A stretch of DNA of 55,072 nt from assembly GCA_030638575.1 (NCBI GenBank), contig DAOWEJ010000105.1, forward strand, positions 1 through 55,072, given 5' to 3'. Position numbers and translations under genes: made by a program. Positions 1,948-52,393 of the stretch are shown piece by piece (the stretch's first letter is position 1; every line of letters starts with the position of its first letter). Source of the DNA: Deltaproteobacteria bacterium. GTDB taxonomy: Bacteria; Desulfobacterota; Desulfobacteria; Desulfobacterales; JAUWMJ01. The notes below the pieces were generated by a model that was not told the DNA's origin, did no database searches, and saw nothing but the letters and a program-made list of their open reading frames with translations.

Positions 1948-1976
1948 GGGTGGTTATAAGCAATTGATGTGCCAAA
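1948..1976 (-). promoter_or_regulatory. Sigma54 promoter P1 (beta-helix gene)
   Basis: Minus-strand TTTGGCAC-ATCAA-TTGCTT, with GG at 1973-1972 and GC at 1961-1960, exactly the 12-bp -24/-12 spacing of RpoN promoters. The start point is predicted near 1948, leaving a leader of about 240 nt before the ATG at 1708. The core is identical to P2. Confidence 0.8.
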
Positions 1977-2117: not shown

Positions 2118-2311
2118 GAGACCTTTGAAAAACGGCACTTTTCGAAGTCTTGCGCTTATCTGCCCGATTTCTGCGTCAGGCTCAAATTTCGGCACTTTTG
2201 TGAAGCTTTAGCGCTATCCTCGATCCGCCTTAGGTGGACCTGTGGTTGATCCGCCTTGGGCGGATCGCCTTCCTTGAACTCGAACAAAAATTACCATTTT
2301 TCAAAGGTCTC
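2118..2311. mobile_element. GAGACC-ended MITE-like element, copy 1 (194 bp)
   Basis: Inverted ends GAGACCTTTGAAAAACG and ATTTTTCAAAGGTCTC; no coding capacity. Copies 2 and 3 are at 24676 and 25255. This copy sits inside the region upstream of P1, between two candidate enhancer palindromes. The related region upstream of P2 lacks it, which supports insertion. Confidence 0.75.
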
Positions 2312-8176: not shown

Positions 8177-9031
8177 TTAATTTAGTTTTGTTAGGAGGAT
8201 CAGGAGTTGCTCTGCAACCTTTTTCCGGCCTGTTTCATTAAGGTGACCACCGTCGTAAGTGTATTCCGGGACAAGGGTATAATAAGTTTTTCCGCTTTTT
8301 GTAAATGACGAACGCGTCCCATCGGGAAAAGTTGATTCTATCTTTGCGAGGTCGAAGATGGGAGCTTTCCCATCGTATTCTTGAACAAGCATCTCATTGA
8401 AGAGACTCCTTTTTATATTGTCATGATAGTCAAAAACAGGTCTGCCGATAATCTTCTTTATTGCATTCTTGGCGCTCCTGATCAAACCCTGAAGGCCGAC
8501 TGGTTTGGAAGTGAGGGGTACGGTAACATGAACAAATGTTGTATTCGGATAAGCGTCTATTAATTTTGAAAGAGTATTTTTATAGTCATTGAAAATATTC
8601 CGAATTTCGGTTCCAGCCCTTACATCCACATAACAGAATTTAAAAAAGGCGATGTCCGCTTCCTTACCGATACCTCTATCCATAAAATTTGCAAAGGCGT
8701 CTATTTTTGATCCTGGATCAGTATTCTTACCAACCTTTGAATGTGCAAAAAGGCCAGATTTAAAATCAGATTGGTCGGTAGTTTCAATAATATTTAGCTT
8801 AATCTGAGGATTTTCTTTCATAAGGTCTTTGATGCCGTCTATGATATTGAAACCTACTGACTGGTGGCCAAAATATATCTTTTTTTGAGAAAGTTTTTCC
8901 CATTTAGCAGTCGGAATATCTTTTACGCTGGGAAATCGAGCTGCTTTTTCTGGCATTTCTCCTCCACTGCAACTGATTAATAAAAATGAAAACAAAGTTA
9001 TTATTAATAGAGATTTGTTGTTTAGTGTCAT
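8177..9031 (-). CDS. Lipoprotein, SGNH/GDSL-hydrolase-like
   Basis: A 284-residue protein with a lipoprotein signal (hydrophobic 8-20, lipobox LLISC, lipidated Cys21). The mature part has a YFGHQSVGFN motif near residue 52 and DGGHLNETG near the C-terminus; the D-x-x-H pattern resembles the Asp-His end of SGNH esterases, and Ser in GHQSVG could be the nucleophile. The canonical GDS block is absent, so this is a resemblance only. It is the first gene after sigma54 promoter P2 and precedes the sugar-nucleotide genes. A role such as acylation or deacylation of the polysaccharide at the envelope is inferred. Only a weak SD (GAGAGG) is seen. Confidence 0.6.
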   Translation of the reverse strand: MTLNNKSLLIITLFSFLLISCSGGEMPEKAARFPSVKDIPTAKWEKLSQKKIYFGHQSVGFNIIDGIKDLMKENPQIKLNIIETTDQSDFKSGLFAHSKVGKNTDPGSKIDAFANFMDRGIGKEADIAFFKFCYVDVRAGTEIRNIFNDYKNTLSKLIDAYPNTTFVHVTVPLTSKPVGLQGLIRSAKNAIKKIIGRPVFDYHDNIKRSLFNEMLVQEYDGKAPIFDLAKIESTFPDGTRSSFTKSGKTYYTLVPEYTYDGGHLNETGRKKVAEQLLILLTKLN

Positions 9032-9611: not shown

Positions 9612-9640
9612 GCGTTGTTATAAGCAATTGATGTGCCAAA
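9612..9640 (-). promoter_or_regulatory. Sigma54 promoter P2 (lipoprotein and sugar-nucleotide genes)
   Basis: Minus-strand TTTTGGCAC-ATCAA-TTGCTT, with GG at 9637-9636 and GC at 9625-9624 (12-bp spacing). The core is identical to P1, and both flanks resemble P1, so the two promoter regions are related copies. Predicted start near 9612; the leader of about 580 nt includes repeat R6. Confidence 0.8.
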
Positions 9641-9794
9641 ACGGATGATTTAGAATTTAAATTGCTGTATTATTATATATTAATATTTCAGACTGTTATG
9701 TGACAGTTTGTGTAATTAATAATATAAATGAAATAGGCCTTTTAAAGATGTGGTTAGAATGGGAAGGTTATTACACAATAACAGGGAAAGATAG

Positions 9795-9806
9795 GTAATT
9801 TATTGC
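9795..9806. promoter_or_regulatory. Candidate enhancer palindrome GTAATTTATTGC (P2)
   Basis: One mismatch from GTAAT-N2-ATTAC, about 160 bp upstream of P2, and aligned by flanking sequence with the distal P1 site at 2332. Confidence 0.4.
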
Positions 9807-10005
9807 ACATTTTATGAAACTTATTACACAAACAAGGCTGGAAAGCTTGGAAACCAGGAAGCTTGGAAGCTGAATAGACCGAAATTTAGTATACTAGTGA
9901 TAAAAAAGAATGATCCTGAATATTATTGCCTGCCCCGTAGGGAGGAACTATCGTACTGGGGTGTGTCTGCCTGCCCCGTGGCTCCGGCAGATGGTCCCGG
10001 GGTGG

Positions 10006-15735: not shown

Positions 15736-17748
15736 CTATCTTCCCAGCTTCCCGGCCTCCTGGCCTTTTCCAAATATTTTGACATCATCCGGCTCTTGAA
15801 TCGGATGAGTAGGGAAATTTTGTATAAACTGGTGATCTAAAAGCTGAGTGGAAAGAATTCCGACCATGGCCATATTCTCCCGTTCACTTAAAATTTGCCC
15901 TTCCTTCTTCCTGCATTTCATAACAAGCCTTGAAACCTTTTTATTATCAAAATAGCCGCTTCTCTTGATTGCACTTTCTGACAGCAAATCTTCCACATAA
16001 TCGACAGGTTGATTACCAAAAAAACATTTACTTATGGGTGCACGATACGGTTGTTTGGGTCTGTCAATTACTTCAGCAGGAATAAGGCCGCGAGCTGCCT
16101 GCTTTAAAATGAATTTTTCCTTAAGCCCGTTCATTCGATAGCATGGCGGAACCCGGGTGGCAAACTCAACCACGCGATGGTCCAGAAATGGATAGCGTCC
16201 TTCGACGGCATTTGCCATGGCCATCCGATCTCCTTGGGAAGACAAAAGATAATTTGAAAGAAAAAGATTGATTTCAGTAAATTGGGCTCTTGACAGCGGA
16301 TGCCATGACATGAAATCCGCCGGCAGCGTAGAAACAAATCTATCGAAAAATTCTTCCTGGGTTCCGGTTTCCTTCTGCAAATCATCCGAAAAGAAACCTC
16401 TCAGGTGGGCAGTATTTTGCCATCTGAGCAAGTGAGAATAAACAGGTGAGTTAGTTTCGGAAAGACTTTTTCTGAAAAATCCCTCCAGAAATGCTTTTGC
16501 CTTACCGTTTTGCTGGGCAAAAACATAGGGGTAAAGTCTTTCAAGGAGCATGGGCCGCATCCTGGAATCAGGGTTCCGTGCCCAGAACCTTCGCACCCTG
16601 TCTTCTTTGAAGATATTATAGCCGGCAAATATCTCATCAGCCCCTTCACCTGTCAGCACTACCTTGAAGTTGTTTTCTCGGACCAGCTTTGAAAGATGAT
16701 AAAGGGGAGCGGGAGCTGTCCTTAGTACTGGCACTTCCGTGTGCCAGATGACTTGAGGGAAAGCCTCTCCGATATCTTTTTCAGCACACCTAATATCTCG
16801 ATGTTCAGTTTCAAGGGCATTAACTGCTATTTCTTGAAAAGGAGTTTCGTCGAAACGGCTATCTGTGAAACTGACTGAAAAAGTACGAAGTAAATTGTTG
16901 AAATTGCGTTTTACGAGTGCACTGGTATAGGTGCTGTCAAGTCCGCCGCTTAGATACGCTCCAACAGGAACATCCGCACGGAGCCGAATTCTTGCAGCAT
17001 CACGAAGCAAATGGTTTAATTCTTCTGTCCATTCTAATAAAGGTCGTTCACTTGGGTATTCATCACTTTGACTGTTAAAAGATAATTTCCAGTAGCGATG
17101 TGTTCTGAAACCCTTCTTAGAGAACCTGGCATAATGCCCCGGCGGAACCTGATATATATCCCCGAACGGCGTAGAAGAACCAACAGGTGTCCAGCATGTA
17201 AATATATCTGAAAGTGTCTGTGAATCGAGTTTGCGTGGAATCGTTGGGTCAGCAAACAGAGCTTTTACTTCAGAACCGAATACCAGCCGCCCGTTATTTT
17301 GGTAGTAGAAAAGAGGCCTGATACCCACCCTATCACGCCCAAGCAGCAAGGCTTCCTTTTTTTGGTCCCACAGGGCAAATGCAAACTGTCCGTTCAGGTC
17401 ATTAAACATTTCCGAACCGTGTTCCTCATATAAATGCACCAGGACTTCCGTGTCGGTTTGAGTGTAAAACCGGTGGCCCCGTGCAACTAAATCTTCCCGG
17501 AGTTCCGGGTAGTTGAATATTTCACCGTTGAACACTATCCACACAGATCGATCTTCATTGTGAATCGGTTGATCTCCGCCACTTAAGTCAATGATACTCA
17601 ACCTTGCATGCGCCAATCCCGCATTAGGGCTTATGAAAATACCTGAGGCATCCGGCCCCCTGTGACGAATAAGTCCGATCATCCGGCAAAGGGTGCCTTG
17701 CATGTCTTCAGCGTGATTATAATTAATTATTCCTGCTATTCCGCACAT
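15736..17748 (-). CDS. asnB: Asparagine-synthase-like amidotransferase (exosortase-locus type)
   Basis: A 670-residue class II glutamine amidotransferase fused to an asparagine-synthase domain. Cys2 (MCGIAG) is the glutaminase nucleophile; RHRGPD (29-34), FNGEIFN (73-79) and SGGLDS PP-loop (267-272) are intact, as is LTGEGADEIFAGY. Family members ATP-activate a carboxylate and amidate it. A member of this family is a regular component of exosortase-A EPS loci, where it is thought to amidate a sugar acid or modify the polymer rather than make asparagine. With two UDP-uronate dehydrogenases nearby, uronamide formation is a reasonable inference. The last residues (EAGKLGR) come from an AAGCTGGGAAG dispersed repeat. 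Confidence 0.85.
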   Translation of the reverse strand: MCGIAGIINYNHAEDMQGTLCRMIGLIRHRGPDASGIFISPNAGLAHARLSIIDLSGGDQPIHNEDRSVWIVFNGEIFNYPELREDLVARGHRFYTQTDTEVLVHLYEEHGSEMFNDLNGQFAFALWDQKKEALLLGRDRVGIRPLFYYQNNGRLVFGSEVKALFADPTIPRKLDSQTLSDIFTCWTPVGSSTPFGDIYQVPPGHYARFSKKGFRTHRYWKLSFNSQSDEYPSERPLLEWTEELNHLLRDAARIRLRADVPVGAYLSGGLDSTYTSALVKRNFNNLLRTFSVSFTDSRFDETPFQEIAVNALETEHRDIRCAEKDIGEAFPQVIWHTEVPVLRTAPAPLYHLSKLVRENNFKVVLTGEGADEIFAGYNIFKEDRVRRFWARNPDSRMRPMLLERLYPYVFAQQNGKAKAFLEGFFRKSLSETNSPVYSHLLRWQNTAHLRGFFSDDLQKETGTQEEFFDRFVSTLPADFMSWHPLSRAQFTEINLFLSNYLLSSQGDRMAMANAVEGRYPFLDHRVVEFATRVPPCYRMNGLKEKFILKQAARGLIPAEVIDRPKQPYRAPISKCFFGNQPVDYVEDLLSESAIKRSGYFDNKKVSRLVMKCRKKEGQILSERENMAMVGILSTQLLDHQFIQNFPTHPIQEPDDVKIFGKGQEAGKLGR

Positions 17749-18354: not shown

Positions 18355-19710
18355 TCATCTTCCCGTCCTGTATGGCTGACTGCGAGTTAACGTTATGCTC
18401 AAAAGGCCTCGATTTTCAACGTAATCAATTGGATCAGTTGAGTCAAAGTTGCGATAGGAATATTCAACCCTTATGCTAAAGTTGATGTTTGAAGACAGCC
18501 ATCTTTCATATTCATATGTAAGCCCGACGCCGCCTCTTGTGGTCTTGTCTCTACGCACAGGGTCCTCGTCCTCATATTTGTCCTGCCGGTATGAACCGAA
18601 AATATCTCCGGTAACGCGCCTTGTAAGATTGTATTCCGCTTCCAGGCCGGCCTCATAAAATATTGACAACCCCAGGCTCTCGGCACCAAAATATGCTCCA
18701 TCGTACCCACCTGATCCTGCTAAGCTTACCGAGCCTCTTTGAAATGTTTTTTCAAAAACGACATCTGCTGTCGGGCCAGATTTGTCATCACGTCCTTCAA
18801 TTTGCTCGTCATAATCCTGGACAAAATAACCGACATCAACGTCAATTCTTTTATCCTGAGCAACCTCGTAATTAAAACCGATATATGGATTATAAATTTG
18901 ATAATCTTCTTCGGTTTTTTCAAAATCAACGTAAATATGGGTATAAGCTAAATGCCCTTCAAGTTGCCGGGAAAACCGTTTTATCAATCGTATATTGCCG
19001 TCCCATGCATTAAAATCATCTGATGGTATACCAATAAATCCATCTTCCCTGTCGTACTCAGCCTTTATATATGATACTATTATTTCACTACCCCATCGTG
19101 GAGTAAACCAATAAGTAAGACCTGCTGACGGAATATGCCGTGAATTGTCTTCAAGGGTTTCATCTTCGTTTTCAAGGATGCCGTACGCATATTCAAGATA
19201 GAAAGAATCGTTTTCACCAAACTGATTGGTAAACCTTAAACTGGCAATGTTTCTAATGTATGGCTCTCTTGATGTTCTTAAAGTAGGATCTGCTCCTATG
19301 GCAGGATCATCGGAACGCAAATAATAAATATCTTCCTCTCCAAACGGATCTTCAGTTCGCACGAAAGCATTACGTATTTCCAGCCTGCTGTTTCGCGTCA
19401 GGTCTGACCAGCCGTAAAGCAGAGCAGTATGGCGCCATGTGTCGTTCTCAGAGAACTCGTTGTAAATGGCATATGCAGGATCGTACGATATTTCTATTCC
19501 GCTGTGTTGCCACAAGAGTTCAGTAGTAAATCCTAGAGAGATAACGGTAATAAACTCATCTTCTTCAGCATCTTCCAACAGGAAATAATTATCTGTATAT
19601 TCACCGCTAACAGACATCCTTGGTAAAAACGTGGCCTGGAAACCGGCAGCGTTAGATGCAATAAATAAAATAGTGGATATTGCCACGCAAAGATAAATTT
19701 TAAATTTCAT
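18355..19710 (-). CDS. Outer-membrane beta-barrel protein of the PEP-CTERM/EPS system
   Basis: A 451-residue protein with signal peptide (1-22, cut after SNAAG) and a mature region of alternating amphipathic strands with many acidic turns (DNYFLLEDAEEDEF, YRDEDP-like loops) ending in an aromatic-rich strand (RGLLSITLTRSQ). This pattern matches the large outer-membrane barrels regularly encoded in exosortase-A EPS loci. It probably forms the outer-membrane conduit or scaffold for polymer secretion, next to the Wza-like lipoprotein/export gene upstream. No enzymatic motif is seen. The start ATG follows a TTGTTGTCCGTTGT repeat, with no strong SD. Confidence 0.8.
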   Translation of the reverse strand: MKFKIYLCVAISTILFIASNAAGFQATFLPRMSVSGEYTDNYFLLEDAEEDEFITVISLGFTTELLWQHSGIEISYDPAYAIYNEFSENDTWRHTALLYGWSDLTRNSRLEIRNAFVRTEDPFGEEDIYYLRSDDPAIGADPTLRTSREPYIRNIASLRFTNQFGENDSFYLEYAYGILENEDETLEDNSRHIPSAGLTYWFTPRWGSEIIVSYIKAEYDREDGFIGIPSDDFNAWDGNIRLIKRFSRQLEGHLAYTHIYVDFEKTEEDYQIYNPYIGFNYEVAQDKRIDVDVGYFVQDYDEQIEGRDDKSGPTADVVFEKTFQRGSVSLAGSGGYDGAYFGAESLGLSIFYEAGLEAEYNLTRRVTGDIFGSYRQDKYEDEDPVRRDKTTRGGVGLTYEYERWLSSNINFSIRVEYSYRNFDSTDPIDYVENRGLLSITLTRSQPYRTGR

Positions 19711-20113: not shown

Positions 20114-20716
20114 TTAAGGCACAATAATGGTGTCATCAGCCTGAAGCTGAACATTTTGACTGAAATCTTTCCCTTTTAAAATATCTTTATAGTTGATTCT
20201 TATCGTTTTCTCCTTTCCATTTTCTTTCCTGAAAAGGATAATCTCTTTTTTAGATGCCCATTCCGTGAATCCCCCTGCAAGGGCAAATGCCTGGAGAACC
20301 GTAAGGTTTTTTACAAGAGGGTACTCTCCGGTATTGACGACTTCTCCTAAAATATAGATCCTCTTGCTCGCCGGACTTCTGATAGTTACAGTGACAACAG
20401 GATTGGATATATATCCCTTTAATTTATTCTGGATATCTTTTTTAAGCTCCAAAGGCGTTCGGCCACCTGCCTGGACATCGTCAAGAAGAGGAAAAGAAAT
20501 TTTTCCGTCGATCCTTACTAAAATTTCCTCCCTTGAAAAATCAAGCTCTTTCCACGTAGTAATATCTATAATATCACCGCTGCCGATCCTGTAAGGATTT
20601 ACACTGAACTTTGTATCTGCTGCTGAAGGCTTTTGTTCACCTGCATAGACATTGGATGCAGTATATGTGAGAATAAATGCCAAACAAATGCTTATGAAGA
20701 TAAAATGCTTTTTCAT
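20114..20716 (-). CDS. Polysaccharide export protein, Wza-like (exosortase-locus type)
   Basis: A 200-residue protein with signal peptide (1-25, cut after VYA), a poly_export domain (YRIGSGDIIDITTW..., about 42-115: RIDGKISFPLLDDVQAGG) and a SLBB-like region (VVNTGEYPLVKNLTVLQAFALAGG, 130-155). The family forms the periplasmic/outer-membrane channel through which polymer leaves the cell. It is shorter than Wza (about 380) but of normal size for PEP-CTERM-locus export proteins. No lipobox Cys is seen after the signal. It lies between the tyrosine autokinase and the outer-membrane barrel genes. Confidence 0.88.
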   Translation of the reverse strand: MKKHFIFISICLAFILTYTASNVYAGEQKPSAADTKFSVNPYRIGSGDIIDITTWKELDFSREEILVRIDGKISFPLLDDVQAGGRTPLELKKDIQNKLKGYISNPVVTVTIRSPASKRIYILGEVVNTGEYPLVKNLTVLQAFALAGGFTEWASKKEIILFRKENGKEKTIRINYKDILKGKDFSQNVQLQADDTIIVP

Positions 20717-21111: not shown

Positions 21112-21960
21112 TTAGTCTTTACCGTAGTATTTACCATATTGGGAATATTTGCCGTATCCGTAATATGCAGATGAACGTACATCGAACCAATTAACAACAA
21201 TTCCGAGCACCTTTTCTTTCCCCATCATTTCAAGCAAATCCCCAACAAGCTCACGCCGTGTACTGCCTGCTTTCACGACCAGAAGAATCCCGTCAACCTG
21301 CCTGGCGATGACACTTGTCTCTGATGTCAGGTGCGGTGGCGGTGAATCTATAATAATATAACGGTCATTATATCTTGACGTTACTTCTTTAAGAAGCTCT
21401 GCCATTTTTTTTGAAGACATAAGTTCAGCCGGATTTTGAGGCGGTCTACCGCCCGGTAAAATGGTCAACTTGTTTATCTCGGTCTTTAAAAGCAGCGAGG
21501 ATAAAGATGTACCTTTTGACAGATGTTCGCTAAGTCCTTTAACATCATGAAATCCGAAATTGCCATGAATAGTGGCTTTGCGCATATCACAGTCCATCAA
21601 AAGAACATGCTGATCAATATTCTGGGCAATGCTTACCGCCAAATTGGATGACACGAAAGACTTTCCCTCGCCAGGAACAGCACTGGTTACCATTATTGAA
21701 CGGGGGGGCTTACCGGAAACAGGAAACAAAATATTTGTTCTTAGATGTTTGAATTGTTCAGACTCAAAAGATTGGGGCTCAAGAAGCGACACAATATTCT
21801 CATCGACGTCCCTGCTTTTAAAAACTGTCTTGATTGCCCCGGAGGACGCCTTTTCTCTTGCATTTCTGTCATATACTTTAAACATAGAGGCTTTATCTGT
21901 TGAGACTGAAGCCTTGTTTTCCTTGTCTGATTTTATCAGTGCATCGTTTATTTTGCCCAA
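21112..21960 (-). CDS. Tyrosine autokinase, CpsD/CapB type (exosortase-locus)
   Basis: A 282-residue bacterial tyrosine kinase. Walker A SAVPGEGKS (93-101), Walker A' VLLMDCDMRK (119-128) and Walker B IIIDSPPP (about 205) are intact. The C-terminal 20 residues hold seven tyrosines, the expected autophosphorylation cluster. In this family the cytoplasmic kinase works with a Wzz-type membrane partner to set chain length and drive export. That partner is encoded 37 nt upstream (21998-23548), as in exosortase-A loci where the two are split. Confidence 0.9.
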   Translation of the reverse strand: MGKINDALIKSDKENKASVSTDKASMFKVYDRNAREKASSGAIKTVFKSRDVDENIVSLLEPQSFESEQFKHLRTNILFPVSGKPPRSIMVTSAVPGEGKSFVSSNLAVSIAQNIDQHVLLMDCDMRKATIHGNFGFHDVKGLSEHLSKGTSLSSLLLKTEINKLTILPGGRPPQNPAELMSSKKMAELLKEVTSRYNDRYIIIDSPPPHLTSETSVIARQVDGILLVVKAGSTRRELVGDLLEMMGKEKVLGIVVNWFDVRSSAYYGYGKYSQYGKYYGKD

Positions 21961-21997: not shown

Positions 21998-23548
21998 TTA
22001 TGTAATGCCTTTAAGGCCCGCAAGGTCAAAACCGGTCAGTGAAATAAAAGTAAAACTTGCCAGCAATGCAAATGATACTATGACGAAAAAAATACTCAAA
22101 ACCTGATTAAATCTTTGCTTTCTTATATCTTTAGGGTGGAGGACTAAAGGAATAGTGGCAAGAACAGGGAGTTCAAGAAACGACTCAATCTCTTCAGGCC
22201 GCCTGAAAGAAGTGTCAAGATATTCCAGTAAAAAGACAAACCCGCACCCTATCCCCAGGCCTGCAGCTACAAAAAGTAAAAACAATTTGTTCATATCGGG
22301 CTCGCTCGGCCGTTCTGCCATCCTTGCAGGATCAATAATTCGGAATTGCTCACCCTTTTTCTTTATCTCCATATTTACCGATATTTCTGCTTCGAGCTTA
22401 CGGCCCAATAGAGAATTATATGTTTCATTTATATTATCATAATCCCTTCTTAAAGATAAAAGCTCCTGTTCTCTTTTCGGAGTATCTTCAACCCGCTTTT
22501 CAAGATTTTTTATCTGGTTAACTATTTGTAAAATATCCGCCTCCAGAGTCTTTTTTTCACTTTTTATCTCTTCATACTGTCTCCTATCCGAAGCATTCAA
22601 GCCCGACACACCTACAGGCGACTCTACTCCATCTTTATTGGCTGCCTCAAGATCTGCCAGGATCCTTGTAAGCCTGATAATGTCAGGATGCTTATTTGTA
22701 TATCTTGTTTTAAGGTTTGCGAGTTGTTCTTTTATTTGCACGGGATCCGTAGAATCTTCGATTCCCGGTTGAACCGGTTGGGTGGGTGTTTGAGTTCCTG
22801 TTATTCTTGGTATCTGGTTTTCCAACATTGCAAGTCTGTTCCTGGCATCCCGGAGGCTTTCCTGTTTTTCACCCATCTGCACCTGCAATCTGTCAAGTAT
22901 TCTTAAGTTGGTTTCAAGCTGTTCCGGAAGGCTTCCCATGTATCTTTCACGGTAATTCTTAATTCCCTGTTCAACTTCCACAAGCCTTTTTCTCATGGTG
23001 CTGAGTTCATCTTCAAGAAAGACATTCGTTCCTATAGCCCGTTCTTGTCTGTATTTGAGATTTTCAATTATAAAATAATTTGCAAGAGCATTTGTTACAT
23101 CTTTAACAGTTTTAGGATCTTTCCCTTTAAATGAAATCGAAAAGGCATCGGCAGGAGCCCGGCGTCGTCCTCTTATAAGGTTAATGGAAATCCTCTTACA
23201 AATCGCATCAACTTTATCCTCCATAAAAATCTTGTCATGCTCCGGCTTCGGAAATAGATTGAATTCACCTATTATCTTTTCAATGTTTGTACGACTTGTT
23301 ATCTGCTGCGATATGGTGTTTATCATGGAGTCAAGATCAACAGAAATGACCGGGCGGACGAACTCTTCAGGGACTCTTTGGGGTTGAATCAGAATCAAAG
23401 TATCTGAAGTGTAAATCTTAGGGGCAGTCAGAACAAAGCAAATCCCCACGATCATGGAAAGACAAAAAGGGATAATAATGTACCAGCGACGTCTTAAGAT
23501 TATCTCTATAATGTCTCCAGGTTTTATTGTTTCTACGGGGTTGCGCAT
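21998..23548 (-). CDS. Wzz-type polysaccharide chain-length determinant (exosortase-locus)
   Basis: A 516-residue inner-membrane protein. One N-terminal membrane segment (RRWYIIIPFCLSMIVGICFV, about 19-38) and a second near 430-455 (FLLFVAAGLGIGCGFVFLL), followed by the PEEIESFLELPVLATIP signature, enclose a periplasmic coiled-coil domain. A third hydrophobic stretch lies at the C-terminus (IFFVIVSFALLASFTFISL). It regulates polymer length and activates the adjacent tyrosine autokinase. The gene follows the regulator at 23566 by 17 nt, so they should be co-transcribed. Confidence 0.88.
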   Translation of the reverse strand: MRNPVETIKPGDIIEIILRRRWYIIIPFCLSMIVGICFVLTAPKIYTSDTLILIQPQRVPEEFVRPVISVDLDSMINTISQQITSRTNIEKIIGEFNLFPKPEHDKIFMEDKVDAICKRISINLIRGRRRAPADAFSISFKGKDPKTVKDVTNALANYFIIENLKYRQERAIGTNVFLEDELSTMRKRLVEVEQGIKNYRERYMGSLPEQLETNLRILDRLQVQMGEKQESLRDARNRLAMLENQIPRITGTQTPTQPVQPGIEDSTDPVQIKEQLANLKTRYTNKHPDIIRLTRILADLEAANKDGVESPVGVSGLNASDRRQYEEIKSEKKTLEADILQIVNQIKNLEKRVEDTPKREQELLSLRRDYDNINETYNSLLGRKLEAEISVNMEIKKKGEQFRIIDPARMAERPSEPDMNKLFLLFVAAGLGIGCGFVFLLEYLDTSFRRPEEIESFLELPVLATIPLVLHPKDIRKQRFNQVLSIFFVIVSFALLASFTFISLTGFDLAGLKGIT

Positions 23549-23565: not shown

Positions 23566-24522
23566 TTATGTAATATTGTATGCCTTTATTTTATTCAGAA
23601 GGGATTTATAACTTATATTTAGCATCGTTGCAGCCTTTTTTCTGTTCCAGTTTGTCCTTTCAAGAGCCTGTTTCATAAGCTTTTGTTCAGCCTGTGCATT
23701 AATTTCCCTGCAAATATCCTTTAAGGGCAAATTTCCTGAGTCATGTATATAGTTATTAACATCGGCAACCTGTCCAAGATTATGGGTGTATTCATTTATT
23801 TTGCTTTGACTGTTAAGTAGGCTGATTATGCTGTCTTCATTGCCGAGAGCCACTGCACCTTTTACCATATTTTCCAGTTCCGATATATTCCCTGGCCAGT
23901 GATAGTTGAAAAGTGTGTTTTTGATTTTCCGTGACAACCTGTAACGGCTTTTGCCCAGTTCAATACAGTACTTATCTGTAAAAAAATCGGCCAGAAAAGG
24001 TATATCCTCTAGCCTGTGCCTAAGCGGCGGCATCTTCATGCTGATTGCATTTAAGCGATAATAAAGATTTTTCAGGAAAACTCTTTTATGAACAAGTACT
24101 TCAACATCATTGCTGGTCGAGGATATAATTCGAACATCGATATTTCCTTTTAGAATTAAAAGAAGCTCGGCCTGGTAGGCAGCCGGCAGTTGTCCAATTT
24201 CATCTAAAAAGAGGGTCCCTGTGTTTGCGACAGCAAATATTCCCTCTTCATGCTGATTTAAATCCTTAAAAGCAGGGACATTTCTCCCCAGCAGGTCTCT
24301 TTCCGACATTTCATTCATCAGGGCAGAGCAGTTTACCTTGATAAATGGATTATCTCGCCTGTCTGACCGGTATTGTATAATCTTTGCCACAAGTTCTCTG
24401 CCCGTTCCTTTTTCTCCTTTTAGTAAAACCGGCTCCTTCGAACGGCTCAAATCAGGAATCATCTCTTTGATTTTAACAATCTCCGAGCTGTTTCCTATGA
24501 TTGTCGGGCATTCATTTAGCAT
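23566..24522 (-). CDS. Degenerate enhancer-binding protein (AAA+ / Fis), lacks GAFTGA
   Basis: A 318-residue protein aligning along its length with sigma54 activators: AAA+ domain (about 8-235) and a Fis-type helix-turn-helix (about 285-317, NWNRKKAATMLNISYKSLL). Key residues are changed. Walker A reads GEKGTGRE, with Arg42 in place of the lysine, and the sigma54-contact loop GAFTGA reads PAFKDL (83-88). Walker B (TLFLDEIG) and the arginine region (LYYRLN, PPLRHR) remain. There is no receiver domain. It probably binds DNA but is unlikely to open sigma54 promoters itself; an antagonist, co-regulator or feedback role is inferred. It is the first gene of the EPS operon from promoter P3. Confidence 0.85.
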   Translation of the reverse strand: MLNECPTIIGNSSEIVKIKEMIPDLSRSKEPVLLKGEKGTGRELVAKIIQYRSDRRDNPFIKVNCSALMNEMSERDLLGRNVPAFKDLNQHEEGIFAVANTGTLFLDEIGQLPAAYQAELLLILKGNIDVRIISSTSNDVEVLVHKRVFLKNLYYRLNAISMKMPPLRHRLEDIPFLADFFTDKYCIELGKSRYRLSRKIKNTLFNYHWPGNISELENMVKGAVALGNEDSIISLLNSQSKINEYTHNLGQVADVNNYIHDSGNLPLKDICREINAQAEQKLMKQALERTNWNRKKAATMLNISYKSLLNKIKAYNIT

Positions 24523-24675: not shown

Positions 24676-24842
24676 GAGACCTTTGCAAAACGCCCCCTTT
24701 CGAAGTCTGCGCTTATCTGCCCAATCTCTGCGTCAGGCTCAAATTTTGGCACTTTAGTGAAGCTTCAGCGCTATCCTAGATCCGCCTCAGGCGGATCGCC
24801 TTCCTTGACCTTGAACAAAATTGAACATTTTGCAAAGGTCTC
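24676..24842. mobile_element. GAGACC-ended MITE-like element, copy 2 (167 bp)
   Basis: Ends GAGACCTTTGCAAAACG and ATTTTGCAAAGGTCTC are inverted. The flanks AAGGT/AAGGT form a 5-bp direct repeat, as after a transposition. It has no ORF of note. It lies in the leader of the EPS operon with its right end at the predicted P3 start point. Confidence 0.8.
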
Positions 24843-24870
24843 AAGGTGTGAATAGCAAATCGCATGCCAA
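24843..24870 (-). promoter_or_regulatory. Sigma54 promoter P3 (EPS operon)
   Basis: Minus-strand TTGGCAT-GCGAT-TTGCT, GG at 24868-24867 and GC at 24856-24855, 12-bp spacing. One mismatch from TTGGCAC. The predicted start near 24843 is at the edge of MITE copy 2. Confidence 0.72.
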
Positions 24871-24949
24871 GTAATGGAATGGCCTTTTAAAAACCACGGA
24901 AGAAACAGACAATTTAACCAATATCAGGGAAAACTATTACTATTTATTG

Positions 24950-24961
24950 GTAAAATATTAC
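24950..24961. promoter_or_regulatory. Candidate enhancer palindrome GTAAAATATTAC (P3)
   Basis: GTAA-N4-TTAC inverted repeat about 85 bp upstream of P3; compare the P1, P2 and P4 sites. The surrounding sequence (24940-25170) is very AT-rich and has no gene. Confidence 0.35.
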
Positions 24962-25254
24962 TTTTAATATTTGTAAGATTTTGTTAAAATTAATTTTTAT
25001 ATAACATTTATTAAACTTGATTTATAAAAAATGAGAAATAATTTTCCTATAATGTGAATATAATTTCATGATTATTGTGAAAATTTATGCCATTCTACAC
25101 AATACTTTTCAAAATAATATGCTTGTTAAATTCTCATGAATGCTTTATATAAATTTTAAATAATTTACCACAAAAAGACACGGAATATCACTGACAAAGA
25201 CAAAAGACTCGCATCCTGTTGTAATCACCATAAAAGTATATAACTTAAACAGGT

Positions 25255-25396
25255 GAGACCTTTGAAAAACGCCCTCTTTTGTCCGATTTTTGCGTCAGGC
25301 TCAAATTTTAATCCTCGATCCGCCTCAGGCGGACCTGTGGTTAAAATTTTCGCCTTCCTTGAACTCGAACAAAATTGAACATTTTTCAAAGGTCTC
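25255..25396. mobile_element. GAGACC-ended MITE-like element, copy 3 (142 bp)
   Basis: Ends GAGACCTTTGAAAAACG and ATTTTTCAAAGGTCTC are inverted; AGGT flanks both sides. It is a shorter internal form of copies 1 and 2. It stands 28 bp before the start of the receiver gene, so transcription of that gene must start inside it, read through it, or start just after it. Confidence 0.8.
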
Positions 25397-25424
25397 AGGT
25401 TCAGTGAAAATGGAAGGGGTTGAA

Positions 25425-25802
25425 ATGAACAAATCATACAAACTATTGATAATTGATGATAATAAGGAAACCCTGTCAATGCTTCATGCATTTTTTAGCA
25501 AAAAGAATTATGAAGTTGTCTCTTCCCTAAGCGGCCTCGATGGACTTAAATTGTTTGAATCTGAAAAAAAGGGGTTCGATCTGGTTATAACGGACCTTGT
25601 GATGCCCAACATCAGCGGGGTTGCAGTCATTTCTATTATAAAGAAAAAAAATCCCGATACGCCTGTTATAGCAATAACGGGATGGGGTGAACATCCGGAA
25701 GCTTTGGCTTCAGAGGCAAAAGCCGACCTCATATTGTCAAAACCATTGCAGCTTGATGAACTGGAAGTTTCAATTCTCGATTTGCTTTCAATAAAAAAGT
25801 AG
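25425..25802 (+). CDS. Stand-alone response regulator receiver
   Basis: A 125-residue CheY-like receiver domain with no output domain. Acidic pair D11-D12, phosphoacceptor D57 (VITDLVMP), T84-region AITGWG and K in LSKPL are all present. The start ATG at 25425 has SD GGAAGGGG just upstream; a longer frame to 25290 would begin inside the MITE and is rejected. It is followed 10 nt later by a sigma54 activator that lacks a receiver. Together the two resemble a PrsR-type regulator split into two polypeptides. No cognate kinase lies beside it. Confidence 0.88.
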   Translation: MNKSYKLLIIDDNKETLSMLHAFFSKKNYEVVSSLSGLDGLKLFESEKKGFDLVITDLVMPNISGVAVISIIKKKNPDTPVIAITGWGEHPEALASEAKADLILSKPLQLDELEVSILDLLSIKK

Positions 25803-25812
25803 GCCTTGATAT

Positions 25813-26862
25813 ATGGAGAAAGATAAACAAACAGCACCCACCATAATCGGTTTAAGCCCGAATGTAGTAAAAACAAAAGAGCTTATAAATCACGTTGCTG
25901 ATACAGGTTTAAATATAATTATCTGTGGGGAAAGCGGCGTCGGAAAGGAAGTTGTTGCGCAGAACCTTTACCATCGTTCTCCCAGGAAAGGAAAGCCTTT
26001 TGTAAAAATCAACTGTGCAGCATTACCGGAGGGGCTTCTTGAAAGCGAACTGTTTGGCTTTGAACAGGGGGCTTTTACCGGTGCTGAACGCAGAAAACGC
26101 GGAAAATTCGAGCTGGCTCATGGAGGAGTTTTATTATTGGATGAAATCGGCGACATGTCCCTGTCGCTTCAGGCAAAACTTCTTCATGTCCTTCAAAGCG
26201 GCGAGTTCTCTCGATTAGGCTCTGAAAAAGAGTTAAAAACAGACACCTGGATTTTAGCAGCCACCAACCATGAACTCGAGGAGGACATTAAAAATGAAAA
26301 ATTCAGGGAAGACCTGTACTACCGGCTCAATATTATTAAAATCTACCTTTCTCCGCTTCGTGAAAGACCTGAAGATATTCCGGTCCTAATAGACTATTAT
26401 TTAAAAAAATATTCTCCTCGATTTAGGAATAATTCGCTAAATCCCGATTACAGTTTAATTGAAAAGCTGCAAGAATACCACTGGCCCGGAAATGTCAGGG
26501 AACTTCAGAATGTTCTAAAACGGATTCTCGTTCTGGGTAACTGGGAAGAGATTGTTGATGAGCTTACACGCAGTACTTATGCCAAAAACGATTCAACTTC
26601 GGACAAGGCGTCTTCAAAAGAGCCTTCAGTTGTCTCTGATATATTGAATTCTGCCGATGGGCCATTGCAGAATCTTGAATCATTTTCCCTTAAGGACATT
26701 AAGAGAAGAGCACTCAATAGAGTCGAAAAAGAGGCAATCTCTTATGTCCTTGATAGAACAGATTGGAACCGGAGCAAAGCAGCCAAGATTTTAAAAATCA
26801 GCTATAAGACATTATTATACAAAATAAGCGATCTTAAGATAGTGCCCCCAAAAAAATTCTAA
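25813..26862 (+). CDS. Sigma54-dependent transcriptional activator (EBP), Fis family
   Basis: A 349-residue EBP: AAA+ domain (about 12-245) with Walker A GESGVGKE (39-46), the sigma54-contact motif GAFTGA (86-91), Walker B VLLLDE (106-111) and intact arginine region (LYYRLN, SPLRERPEDIP), then a Fis-type helix-turn-helix at the C-terminus (WNRSKAAKILKISYKTLL). It should open sigma54 promoters using ATP. There is no N-terminal sensory domain; the receiver is encoded separately just upstream. The four sigma54 promoters in this window are likely targets. In other PEP-CTERM/EPS bacteria the PrsK-PrsR system with RpoN is reported to control such genes; this is the closest known parallel. Confidence 0.9.
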   Translation: MEKDKQTAPTIIGLSPNVVKTKELINHVADTGLNIIICGESGVGKEVVAQNLYHRSPRKGKPFVKINCAALPEGLLESELFGFEQGAFTGAERRKRGKFELAHGGVLLLDEIGDMSLSLQAKLLHVLQSGEFSRLGSEKELKTDTWILAATNHELEEDIKNEKFREDLYYRLNIIKIYLSPLRERPEDIPVLIDYYLKKYSPRFRNNSLNPDYSLIEKLQEYHWPGNVRELQNVLKRILVLGNWEEIVDELTRSTYAKNDSTSDKASSKEPSVVSDILNSADGPLQNLESFSLKDIKRRALNRVEKEAISYVLDRTDWNRSKAAKILKISYKTLLYKISDLKIVPPKKF

Positions 26863-27403: not shown

Positions 27404-27431
27404 TAGATGGTATCAGCAAGAGATGTGCCAA
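27404..27431 (-). promoter_or_regulatory. Sigma54 promoter P4 (PEP-CTERM gene)
   Basis: Minus-strand TTGGCAC-ATCTC-TTGCTGA, GG at 27429-27428 and GC at 27417-27416, 12-bp spacing. Predicted start near 27404, 72 nt before the ATG. Confidence 0.82.
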
Positions 27432-51952: not shown

Positions 51953-52393
51953 TTTATCCCATGGCTTTCTTATTTGTGTGATTTAACGATTCGATTTCTC
52001 TGGGTTTTCCTTATCAACCTCTGTATCAAGCGTGCGCCCGTCGATTTTAGCCTGATTGTCTGCTTTAAAAATTATGGAGTTCAACAGTATTGCCCCTAAA
52101 CCCCGATTCTTGGCTCCTGATACGATTATCTTGCTAATTCCACAATATTACAGATAAAAGCAACAAACATGCCAATATAATTAACCGTTTTGTGGAAAAA
52201 GGTGAATAAATATGTTTATCTGTTATATCAATAGGATATTAAACAATATTGCCGCATTATTTCTTTTTAGGCATGGAAAGGGGATAAAACATAGCTGGAA
52301 AGCTTAACTTTATGTCAAAGCTTTGACGCTATATCGGTGGAAATACAATGGGTTTGAAGGCAGGCAAAACTGTTACCGGTTAAATCAAAACAT
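51953..52393. other. Spacer upstream of the membrane kinase; possible degraded coding remnant
   Basis: On the minus strand, 52150 to 51980 is a start-less open frame of about 50 codons (IIVSGAKNRGLGAILLNS...IDGRTLDTEVDKENPEK, ending TAA). It may be the end of a lost gene; not recognised. The rest is AT-rich with no further feature. Confidence 0.3.

What the first reader, a model, noticed from the sequence alone, without database searches (positions are those of the whole stretch)
23566..24522. EBP homologue with neither GAFTGA nor the Walker A lysine, first gene of the EPS operon
The sigma54-contact loop reads PAFKDL and Walker A reads GTGRE, while Walker B, arginine region and Fis DNA-binding domain are kept. 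It is unlikely to activate sigma54 promoters alone. The nearby normal EBP has an almost matching helix-turn-helix (WNRSKAAKILKISYKTLL against WNRKKAATMLNISYKSLL), so both may bind the same site. A built-in brake or heteromer partner for the EPS regulon would be a new arrangement.
Basis: partly seen in the sequence, partly recalled or inferred. Interest (0 to 1): 0.65.

Follow-up and report, generated by a model that had tools for sequence, protein, structure and literature searches.

The report
Dead activator heading exopolysaccharide operon
The first gene of this slime-sugar (exopolysaccharide) operon encodes a relative of sigma-54 gene activators that has lost the parts needed to switch genes on but keeps its DNA-reading head; at least 34 related bacteria keep such a protein in this place, so it is probably a feedback regulator of the operon that an intact sister activator turns on.

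Summary
ORF 23566-24522(-) is an enhancer-binding-protein (EBP) homologue with Walker A GEKGTGRE and PAFKDL in place of GAFTGA. It heads an XrtA-type exopolysaccharide (EPS) export operon.

It belongs to a conserved family ("EBPx", 34 members in about 18 bacterial families of one order). Of 33 full members, none keeps Walker A Lys, Walker B DE and GAFTGA together; 24 of 24 copies of the intact neighbour EBP ("EBPn") keep all three. The family trait is loss of GAFTGA (1/33 keep it), Walker B DE (3/33) and sensor-I Asn (2/33). The P-loop Lys stays in 31/33, so the window's K-to-R is a local change. The arginine fingers and HTH stay. AAA+ and HTH are under purifying selection.

A sigma54 promoter faces EBPx in 32 of 33 loci, so EBPx is itself a product of the operon. 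A shared 20-bp enhancer-like motif lies upstream. Carriers of EBPx nearly always carry EBPn (25/26 against 103/363).

Best reading: a catalytically dead EBP paralogue that feeds back on an EBPn/sigma54-driven EPS operon. Sign and partner contact are untested. Inactive EBPs and mixed EBP pairs are known; a family-wide dead EBP in this feedback position appears new.

The parts
23566..24522 (-). EBPx: catalytically dead EBP homologue (AAA+ plus lid plus Fis-type HTH, no N-terminal domain), 318 aa; first gene of the EPS export operon
24394..24417 (-). Walker A GEKGTGRE (residues 36-43; K to R at 42)
   Evidence: K in 31 of 33 orthologues
24259..24276 (-). L1 loop PAFKDL in place of GAFTGA (residues 83-88)
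   Evidence: GAFTGA in 1 of 33 orthologues
24196..24213 (-). Walker B LFLDEI, kept in the window; DE in only 3 of 33 orthologues
24049..24078 (-). arginine-finger region FLKNLYYRLN: first Arg is Leu here, second Arg (R156) kept; R in 30/33 and 31/33 of the family
23578..23694 (-). Fis-type HTH (WNRKKAATMLNISYKSLLNKI), the most conserved part of the family
24854..24869 (-). sigma54 -24/-12 promoter TGGCATGCGATTTGCT facing EBPx, 347 bp upstream of its ATG
   Evidence: score 18.4 against a shuffled 95% level of 8.8
25076..25095 (-). enhancer-like site GAATGGCATAAATTTTCACA, best copy of the shared motif in the window (25 bits)
25030..25049 (+). weaker copy of the enhancer-like motif (14 bits)
24926..24964 (.). 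two weak adjoining copies of the enhancer-like motif (11-12 bits)
25410..25802 (+). stand-alone receiver-domain protein, divergent, upstream of EBPn; conserved partner gene
25813..26862 (+). EBPn: intact EBP (GESGVGKE, GAFTGA, LLLDEI) with a near-identical HTH; the presumed activator
21998..23548 (-). XrtA-type polysaccharide chain-length determinant (Wzc-like), 17 bp downstream of EBPx
   Evidence: (TIGR03007 above cut-off)
21112..21960 (-). XrtA-associated tyrosine autokinase
   Evidence: TIGR03018, 207.7 bits, slightly under its cut-off
20114..20716 (-). XrtA/PEP-CTERM-type exopolysaccharide export protein (Wza-like)
   Evidence: TIGR03027, under its cut-off
18355..19710 (-). PEP-CTERM-system outer-membrane protein (weak TIGR03016)
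15736..17748 (-). asparagine synthase / XrtA-type amidotransferase of the EPS cluster

Best explanation
EBPx is a catalytically dead paralogue of EPS-locus sigma54 activators, kept as a DNA-binding feedback regulator of the operon it heads. Shown by sequence: its catalytic and sigma54-contact motifs are gone across the family, while the HTH, P-loop and arginine fingers are kept. It lies behind a sigma54 promoter that faces it. Upstream of that promoter is a shared enhancer-like motif. An intact EBP with a near-identical HTH (EBPn) is almost always in the same genome, usually divergent next door. Inferred: EBPn, set by the stand-alone receiver protein, binds the enhancer and fires the sigma54 promoter, which makes EBPx together with the EPS export proteins. 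EBPx then occupies the same enhancer and/or enters EBPn rings as a subunit that cannot hydrolyse ATP or touch sigma54, and so damps or caps EPS expression. In the window's genus the protein is further reduced: the N-terminal pseudo-receiver and the first arginine finger are gone, and in the window species the Walker A lysine too. There, competition for DNA is likelier than ring poisoning.
For: The family is separated from all intact EBPs at 100/100. No member has all three catalytic motifs (0/33), against 24/24 EBPn. Selection is purifying: dN/dS 0.14 in the AAA+ and 0.06 in the HTH, against 0.69 in the linker. A sigma54 promoter facing EBPx scores above the shuffled 95% level in 24/25 loci and in 8/8 loci found later. 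rpoN is present in both other species of the genus and in four further relatives tested. The enhancer-like motif scores LLR 171.8 against about 64 in shuffles. It recurs in 7/8 held-out EBPx loci, against 2/14 EPS operons of genomes that have EBPn but no detected EBPx (p = 0.0015). EBPn is present in 25/26 EBPx carriers, against 103/363 other genomes (p = 3e-12). Only EBPx and EBPn in this genome share the ISYK[ST]LL helix.
Against: No experiment shows DNA binding, repression or contact with EBPn. In L286 and L248 the motif stands without EBPx, so it may simply be EBPn's enhancer. Conversely, most EBPn-only EPS operons lack it, which could mean it is EBPx's own operator. The family keeps the P-loop and arginine fingers, which pure DNA competition would not need. 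Three members keep Walker B DE and one keeps GAFTGA, so decay is uneven. The sign (brake) is inference only.
Confidence: 0.5

Rival explanations
1. Obligate co-activator: EBPx is an inactive but needed subunit of a mixed EBPx-EBPn ring that gives promoter choice or enhancer affinity, as FleT does with FleQ.
For: P-loop Lys (31/33) and arginine fingers (30/33, 31/33) are kept although hydrolysis and the sigma54 loop are lost, as expected of a subunit that binds ATP and serves its neighbour's active site. EBPn co-occurs in 25/26 carriers. FleT is likewise encoded in the sigma54 operon that FleQ turns on (PMC7277832).
Against: EBPn occurs in about 100 genomes without detected EBPx, some with an EPS operon and a sigma54-like promoter, so EBPn can evidently act alone. 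In the window the first arginine finger and the Walker A lysine are lost.
Confidence: 0.22
2. Independent sigma70-type repressor or activator (VpsR / R. capsulatus NtrC / FleQ-like) that has left the sigma54 world and acts at other promoters.
For: Known EBPs without GAFTGA act on sigma70 promoters without ATP hydrolysis (PMC10274813), and several control EPS. A kept P-loop with lost catalysis fits ATP binding without hydrolysis. The best PDB fold match is the FleQ AAA+ domain.
Against: The conserved motif sits upstream of a sigma54 promoter in nearly every locus, EBPn co-occurs almost always, and a FleQ match is expected for any EBP. The receiver is a pseudo-receiver or absent.
Confidence: 0.15
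3. A decaying relic with no present role in the window lineage: pseudo-receiver lost, P-loop mutated.
For: Stepwise loss of parts in the window's genus; long branches in the AAA+ tree.
Against: Open frame with dN/dS 0.15 against the same-genus relative and 88% HTH identity; first-gene position kept in many families.
Confidence: 0.08
4. It still works as a sigma54 activator with an unusual loop and an arginine in the P-loop.
For: Walker B DE is kept in the window; some EBPs tolerate loop variants (D. vulgaris DVUA0100 GVATGV, PMC4641369).
Against: The loop is unconstrained and in 6 of 33 members deleted outright; sensor-I Asn is gone in 31 of 33.
Confidence: 0.05

Closest known systems
FleQ-FleT of Rhodobacter sphaeroides (PMC7277832, PMC9542535)
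   Different: FleT is a needed co-activator for later flagellar genes; EBPx is a catalytically dead protein with its own HTH in an EPS operon, and EBPn occurs without it in many genomes.
HrpR-HrpS and VnfA1-VnfA3 (PMC4145663, PMC9542535)
   Same: Paralogous EBPs that form mixed oligomers and act at shared promoters.
   Different: From general knowledge those subunits are catalytically competent or co-dependent. Loss of both Walker B and GAFTGA throughout one partner family was not found in the papers read.
VpsR, Rhodobacter capsulatus NtrC, Caulobacter NtrC (PMC10274813)
   Same: EBP homologues without GAFTGA that still regulate; Caulobacter ntrC loss affects envelope polysaccharide.
   Different: They act at sigma70 promoters. 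EBPx sits behind a conserved sigma54 promoter and is paired with an intact EBP.
PrsR / PEP-CTERM response regulator (TIGR02915; PMC1569441)
   Same: EBP of exosortase/EPS loci acting at sigma54 promoters with an upstream motif.
   Different: EBPx scores 197 bits against a cut-off of 503, has no true receiver and no sigma54 loop.
FleQ of Pseudomonas (PMC10723142)
   Same: EBP with an N-terminal REC domain that controls EPS genes; best PDB fold match.
   Different: FleQ keeps ATPase and sigma54 function; c-di-GMP binding in EBPx is unknown.

Membership tests
bacterial enhancer-binding protein fold (PF00158 AAA+ plus Fis HTH) | AAA+ sigma54-interaction domain, lid and Fis HTH | tested here: met
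   PF00158 134 bits, AAA_lid_14, HTH_8 above cut-offs; AF2 model pLDDT 88, matches FleQ/NtrC1/PspF
functional sigma54 activator | GAFTGA L1 loop | tested here: not met
   PAFKDL in the window; 1/33 in the family
functional sigma54 activator | Walker A Lys, Walker B DE and sensor-I Asn together | tested here: not met
   window lacks the Walker A Lys; DE in 3/33 and sensor-I Asn in 2/33 of the family
functional sigma54 activator | ATP hydrolysis and open-complex formation | not testable with these tools
   needs purified protein
PrsR (TIGR02915) | score above the curated equivalog cut-off | tested here: not met
   196.8 bits against 502.6
PrsR (TIGR02915) | N-terminal phospho-acceptor receiver | tested here: not met
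   absent in the window; degenerate without the acceptor Asp in orthologues
hetero-oligomeric EBP pair (FleQ-FleT type) | second EBP encoded in a sigma54-driven operon, co-occurring with a first intact EBP | tested here: met
   (promoter by sequence only)
hetero-oligomeric EBP pair (FleQ-FleT type) | physical mixed ring | not testable with these tools
   no complex prediction or binding assay was available
sigma70-acting EBP without GAFTGA (VpsR type) | action at sigma70 promoters | not testable with these tools
   targets unknown; the promoter facing its own operon is sigma54 type
FleQ-like c-di-GMP receptor | linker and post-Walker-A arginines that hold c-di-GMP | tested here: inconclusive
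   window has no Arg in the short leader and Lys after Walker A; compared by eye with residues named in PMC10723142

The most novel reading that the evidence does not exclude
A dominant-negative feedback subunit: an EBP family whose catalysis was lost while DNA reading, ATP pocket and arginine fingers were kept, made by the very sigma54 operon it then restrains by entering EBPn rings at the shared enhancer; a built-in limiter for exopolysaccharide output.
Probability: 0.3. Interest if true: 0.72.

Novelty: new variant of a known kind. Interest (0 to 1): 0.52.

Why it matters
Inactive relatives of sigma54 activators are known one at a time. Here a whole orthologous family lost catalysis and sigma54 contact but stays under selection at a fixed place: first gene of a sigma54-driven EPS operon, next to an intact EBP with the same DNA-reading helix. 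It would show how an AAA+ activator becomes a regulator of its own sister, give a feedback element in exosortase-type EPS regulation, and offer natural dead subunits for testing how many active subunits an EBP ring needs.

Tried and rejected
Walker A K-to-R as the defining change: rejected, 31/33 orthologues have Lys.

Simple dyad counting for the enhancer: weak; the EM motif search succeeded.

The genome-contig scan gave only generic EBPs at 30-38% identity, so no organism names could be attached to the family.

Profile search of the phylum: the best hits outside the order that were read (L275-L285) are intact EBPs with GAFTGA or GAFTDA, none degenerate.

The check for rpoN in this genome was negative. 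The assembly is 76% complete and both sister species have rpoN, so it was set aside.

The EBPn co-occurrence p-value is inflated, because eight carriers were found by looking next to EBPn. The figure used is that.

Relic reading: rejected as the main one because of dN/dS and position.

Full report
**Observation.** The ORF 23566-24522(-) encodes 318 aa and lies 17 bp upstream of a Wzc-like chain-length protein of the XrtA type. It has the EBP AAA+ domain, lid and Fis-type HTH. Walker A is GEKGTGRE, the sigma54 loop is PAFKDL and Walker B LFLDEI is intact. The divergent neighbour at 25813-26862(+), here called EBPn, has all motifs intact. A stand-alone receiver protein (25410-25802) precedes it.

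**The family.** Homologues were sought in 58 and then 389 genomes of the same order, and neighbourhoods were fetched. This gave 34 orthologues ("EBPx") in about 18 families. The usual layout is: receiver protein plus EBPn on one strand; EBPx, Wzc-like protein, tyrosine kinase and export proteins on the other. In a few genomes EBPn lies elsewhere. A maximum-likelihood tree separates EBPx from EBPn, from intact EPS-locus EBPs and from generic EBPs at 100/100. Position within EBPx is poorly resolved because branches are long.

**What is lost and what is kept.** Of 33 full-length members, exact GAFTGA is in 1 (L141), and the loop is deleted outright in 6. Walker B DE is in 3. Sensor-I Asn is in 2. 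No member has Walker A Lys, DE and GAFTGA together, against 24 of 24 EBPn. Walker A Lys is in 31, the two arginine-finger positions in 30 and 31, and the HTH residues N, ISY, L and K in all 33. The family therefore lost the residues for hydrolysis and sigma54 contact but kept the ATP pocket, the in-trans arginines and the DNA-reading head. The window's Walker A Arg is a local change: the same-genus orthologue has Lys.

**N-terminal domain.** Most EBPx carry about 130 aa of a degenerate receiver that lacks the acceptor Asp. It is homologous (hhalign probability 99%) to the same domain in intact EBPs of other orders (L275-L279). So the receiver probably decayed first and the AAA+ later, in this order. 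The window's genus has lost this domain altogether. A separate parallel case exists: L175 has ELVTDA while its same-genus relative L170 keeps GAFTGA.

**Selection.** Between the window species and its same-genus relative, dN/dS is 0.15 for EBPx (AAA+ 0.14, HTH 0.06, linker 0.69), 0.105 for EBPn and 0.13 for the Wzc-like protein. dS is near saturation, so the values are rough, but the contrast between linker and domains is clear.

**Promoter and enhancer.** A -24/-12 sigma54 promoter faces EBPx above the shuffled 95% level in 24 of 25 loci and in 8 of 8 found later. In the window it is TGGCATGCGATTTGCT at 24854-24869(-). No comparable site faces the receiver/EBPn side. rpoN was not found in this 76% complete assembly, but it is present in both other species of the genus and in four further relatives. 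An unsupervised motif search upstream of these promoters gave AAaTGGcAtaaatTTTCAcA (log-likelihood ratio 171.8; shuffles about 64). The window copy at 25076-25095 is the best match in the window and one of only three strict matches in the assembly. In eight held-out EBPx loci the motif recurs in seven. In 14 EPS operons of genomes with EBPn but no detected EBPx it occurs in two (Fisher p 0.0015). The held-out loci are partly close relatives of one training locus, so this test is not fully independent. The motif may be EBPx's operator, or EBPn's enhancer that EBPx shares; the two exceptions (L286, L248) favour sharing.

**Pairing.** EBPn occurs in 25 of 26 EBPx carriers found without looking next to EBPn, and in 103 of 363 other genomes (p 3e-12). 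Many genomes have EBPn alone, so dependence runs one way. In the window's genome only EBPx and EBPn share the ISYK[ST]LL helix among 25 Fis-HTH proteins.

**Structure.** An AF2 model of the window protein (pLDDT 88, the L1 region poor) is an ordinary EBP AAA+ fold; best PDB matches are FleQ, NtrC4, NtrX, NtrC1 and PspF. This shows the fold is kept, no more.

**Mechanism.** The best-supported account is feedback. EBPn fires the sigma54 promoter, the operon makes EBPx, and EBPx acts back at the shared enhancer by occupying it and/or entering EBPn rings as a dead subunit. Layout, promoter sequence, motif loss and selection are shown by sequence; activation by EBPn, binding by EBPx, mixed rings and the negative sign are inferred. 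The kept P-loop and arginine fingers favour ring entry for the family. Their partial loss in the window favours plain DNA competition there.

**What is known.** Mixed EBP pairs exist: HrpR-HrpS, FleQ-FleT, VnfA1-VnfA3. FleT, made by the sigma54 operon that FleQ turns on, is the nearest parallel in wiring. EBPs without GAFTGA exist: VpsR, R. capsulatus NtrC, Caulobacter NtrC. PrsR is the known EBP of exosortase loci, and EBPx is not a member. I found no description of a dead EBP family fixed at the head of a sigma54 EPS operon, in a library that lacks most subscription papers. Hence a new variant of a known kind.

Noticed in passing
window 9623-9638(-) and 1959-1974(-): Two further sigma54-like promoters with the identical sequence TGGCACATCAATTGCT, each preceded by two or three weaker enhancer-like sites (9758-9832; 2096-2369). 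The second faces a secreted beta-helix-type repeat protein cut off by the contig end.
   Followed up: partly
window 27415-27430(-) and 52159-52174(-): Two more sigma54-like promoter matches outside the EPS cluster.
   Followed up: no
window 2118-2311, 24676-24842, 25255-25396: Three small elements flanked by inverted GAGACCTTTG[CA]AAAA repeats (MITE-like). One lies in the EBPx leader and one just upstream of the receiver gene, on either side of the enhancer site.
   Followed up: partly
L175 2538-3953(+) and L170 3189-4526(-): Same-genus EPS-locus EBPs of a separate lineage: L170 keeps GAFTGA, L175 has ELVTDA with Walker A and B intact, which looks like a second, recent and independent loss of the sigma54 loop.
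   Followed up: partly
L141 210-1613(+): The only EBPx member with GAFTGA; its Walker B reads LLEKIG, so the catalytic pair seems to have gone before the sigma54 loop in this line.
   Followed up: yes
L234-L237, L241, L242, L257, L265, L267: In these loci EBPn has a different neighbour, an intact-scoring 476-513 aa EBP on the opposite strand downstream, so EBPn seems to sit beside a second EBP in several lineages.
   Followed up: no
window 8177-9031(-): 284-aa lipoprotein-like protein with no NCBIfam match, next gene after the 9623 promoter.
   Followed up: no
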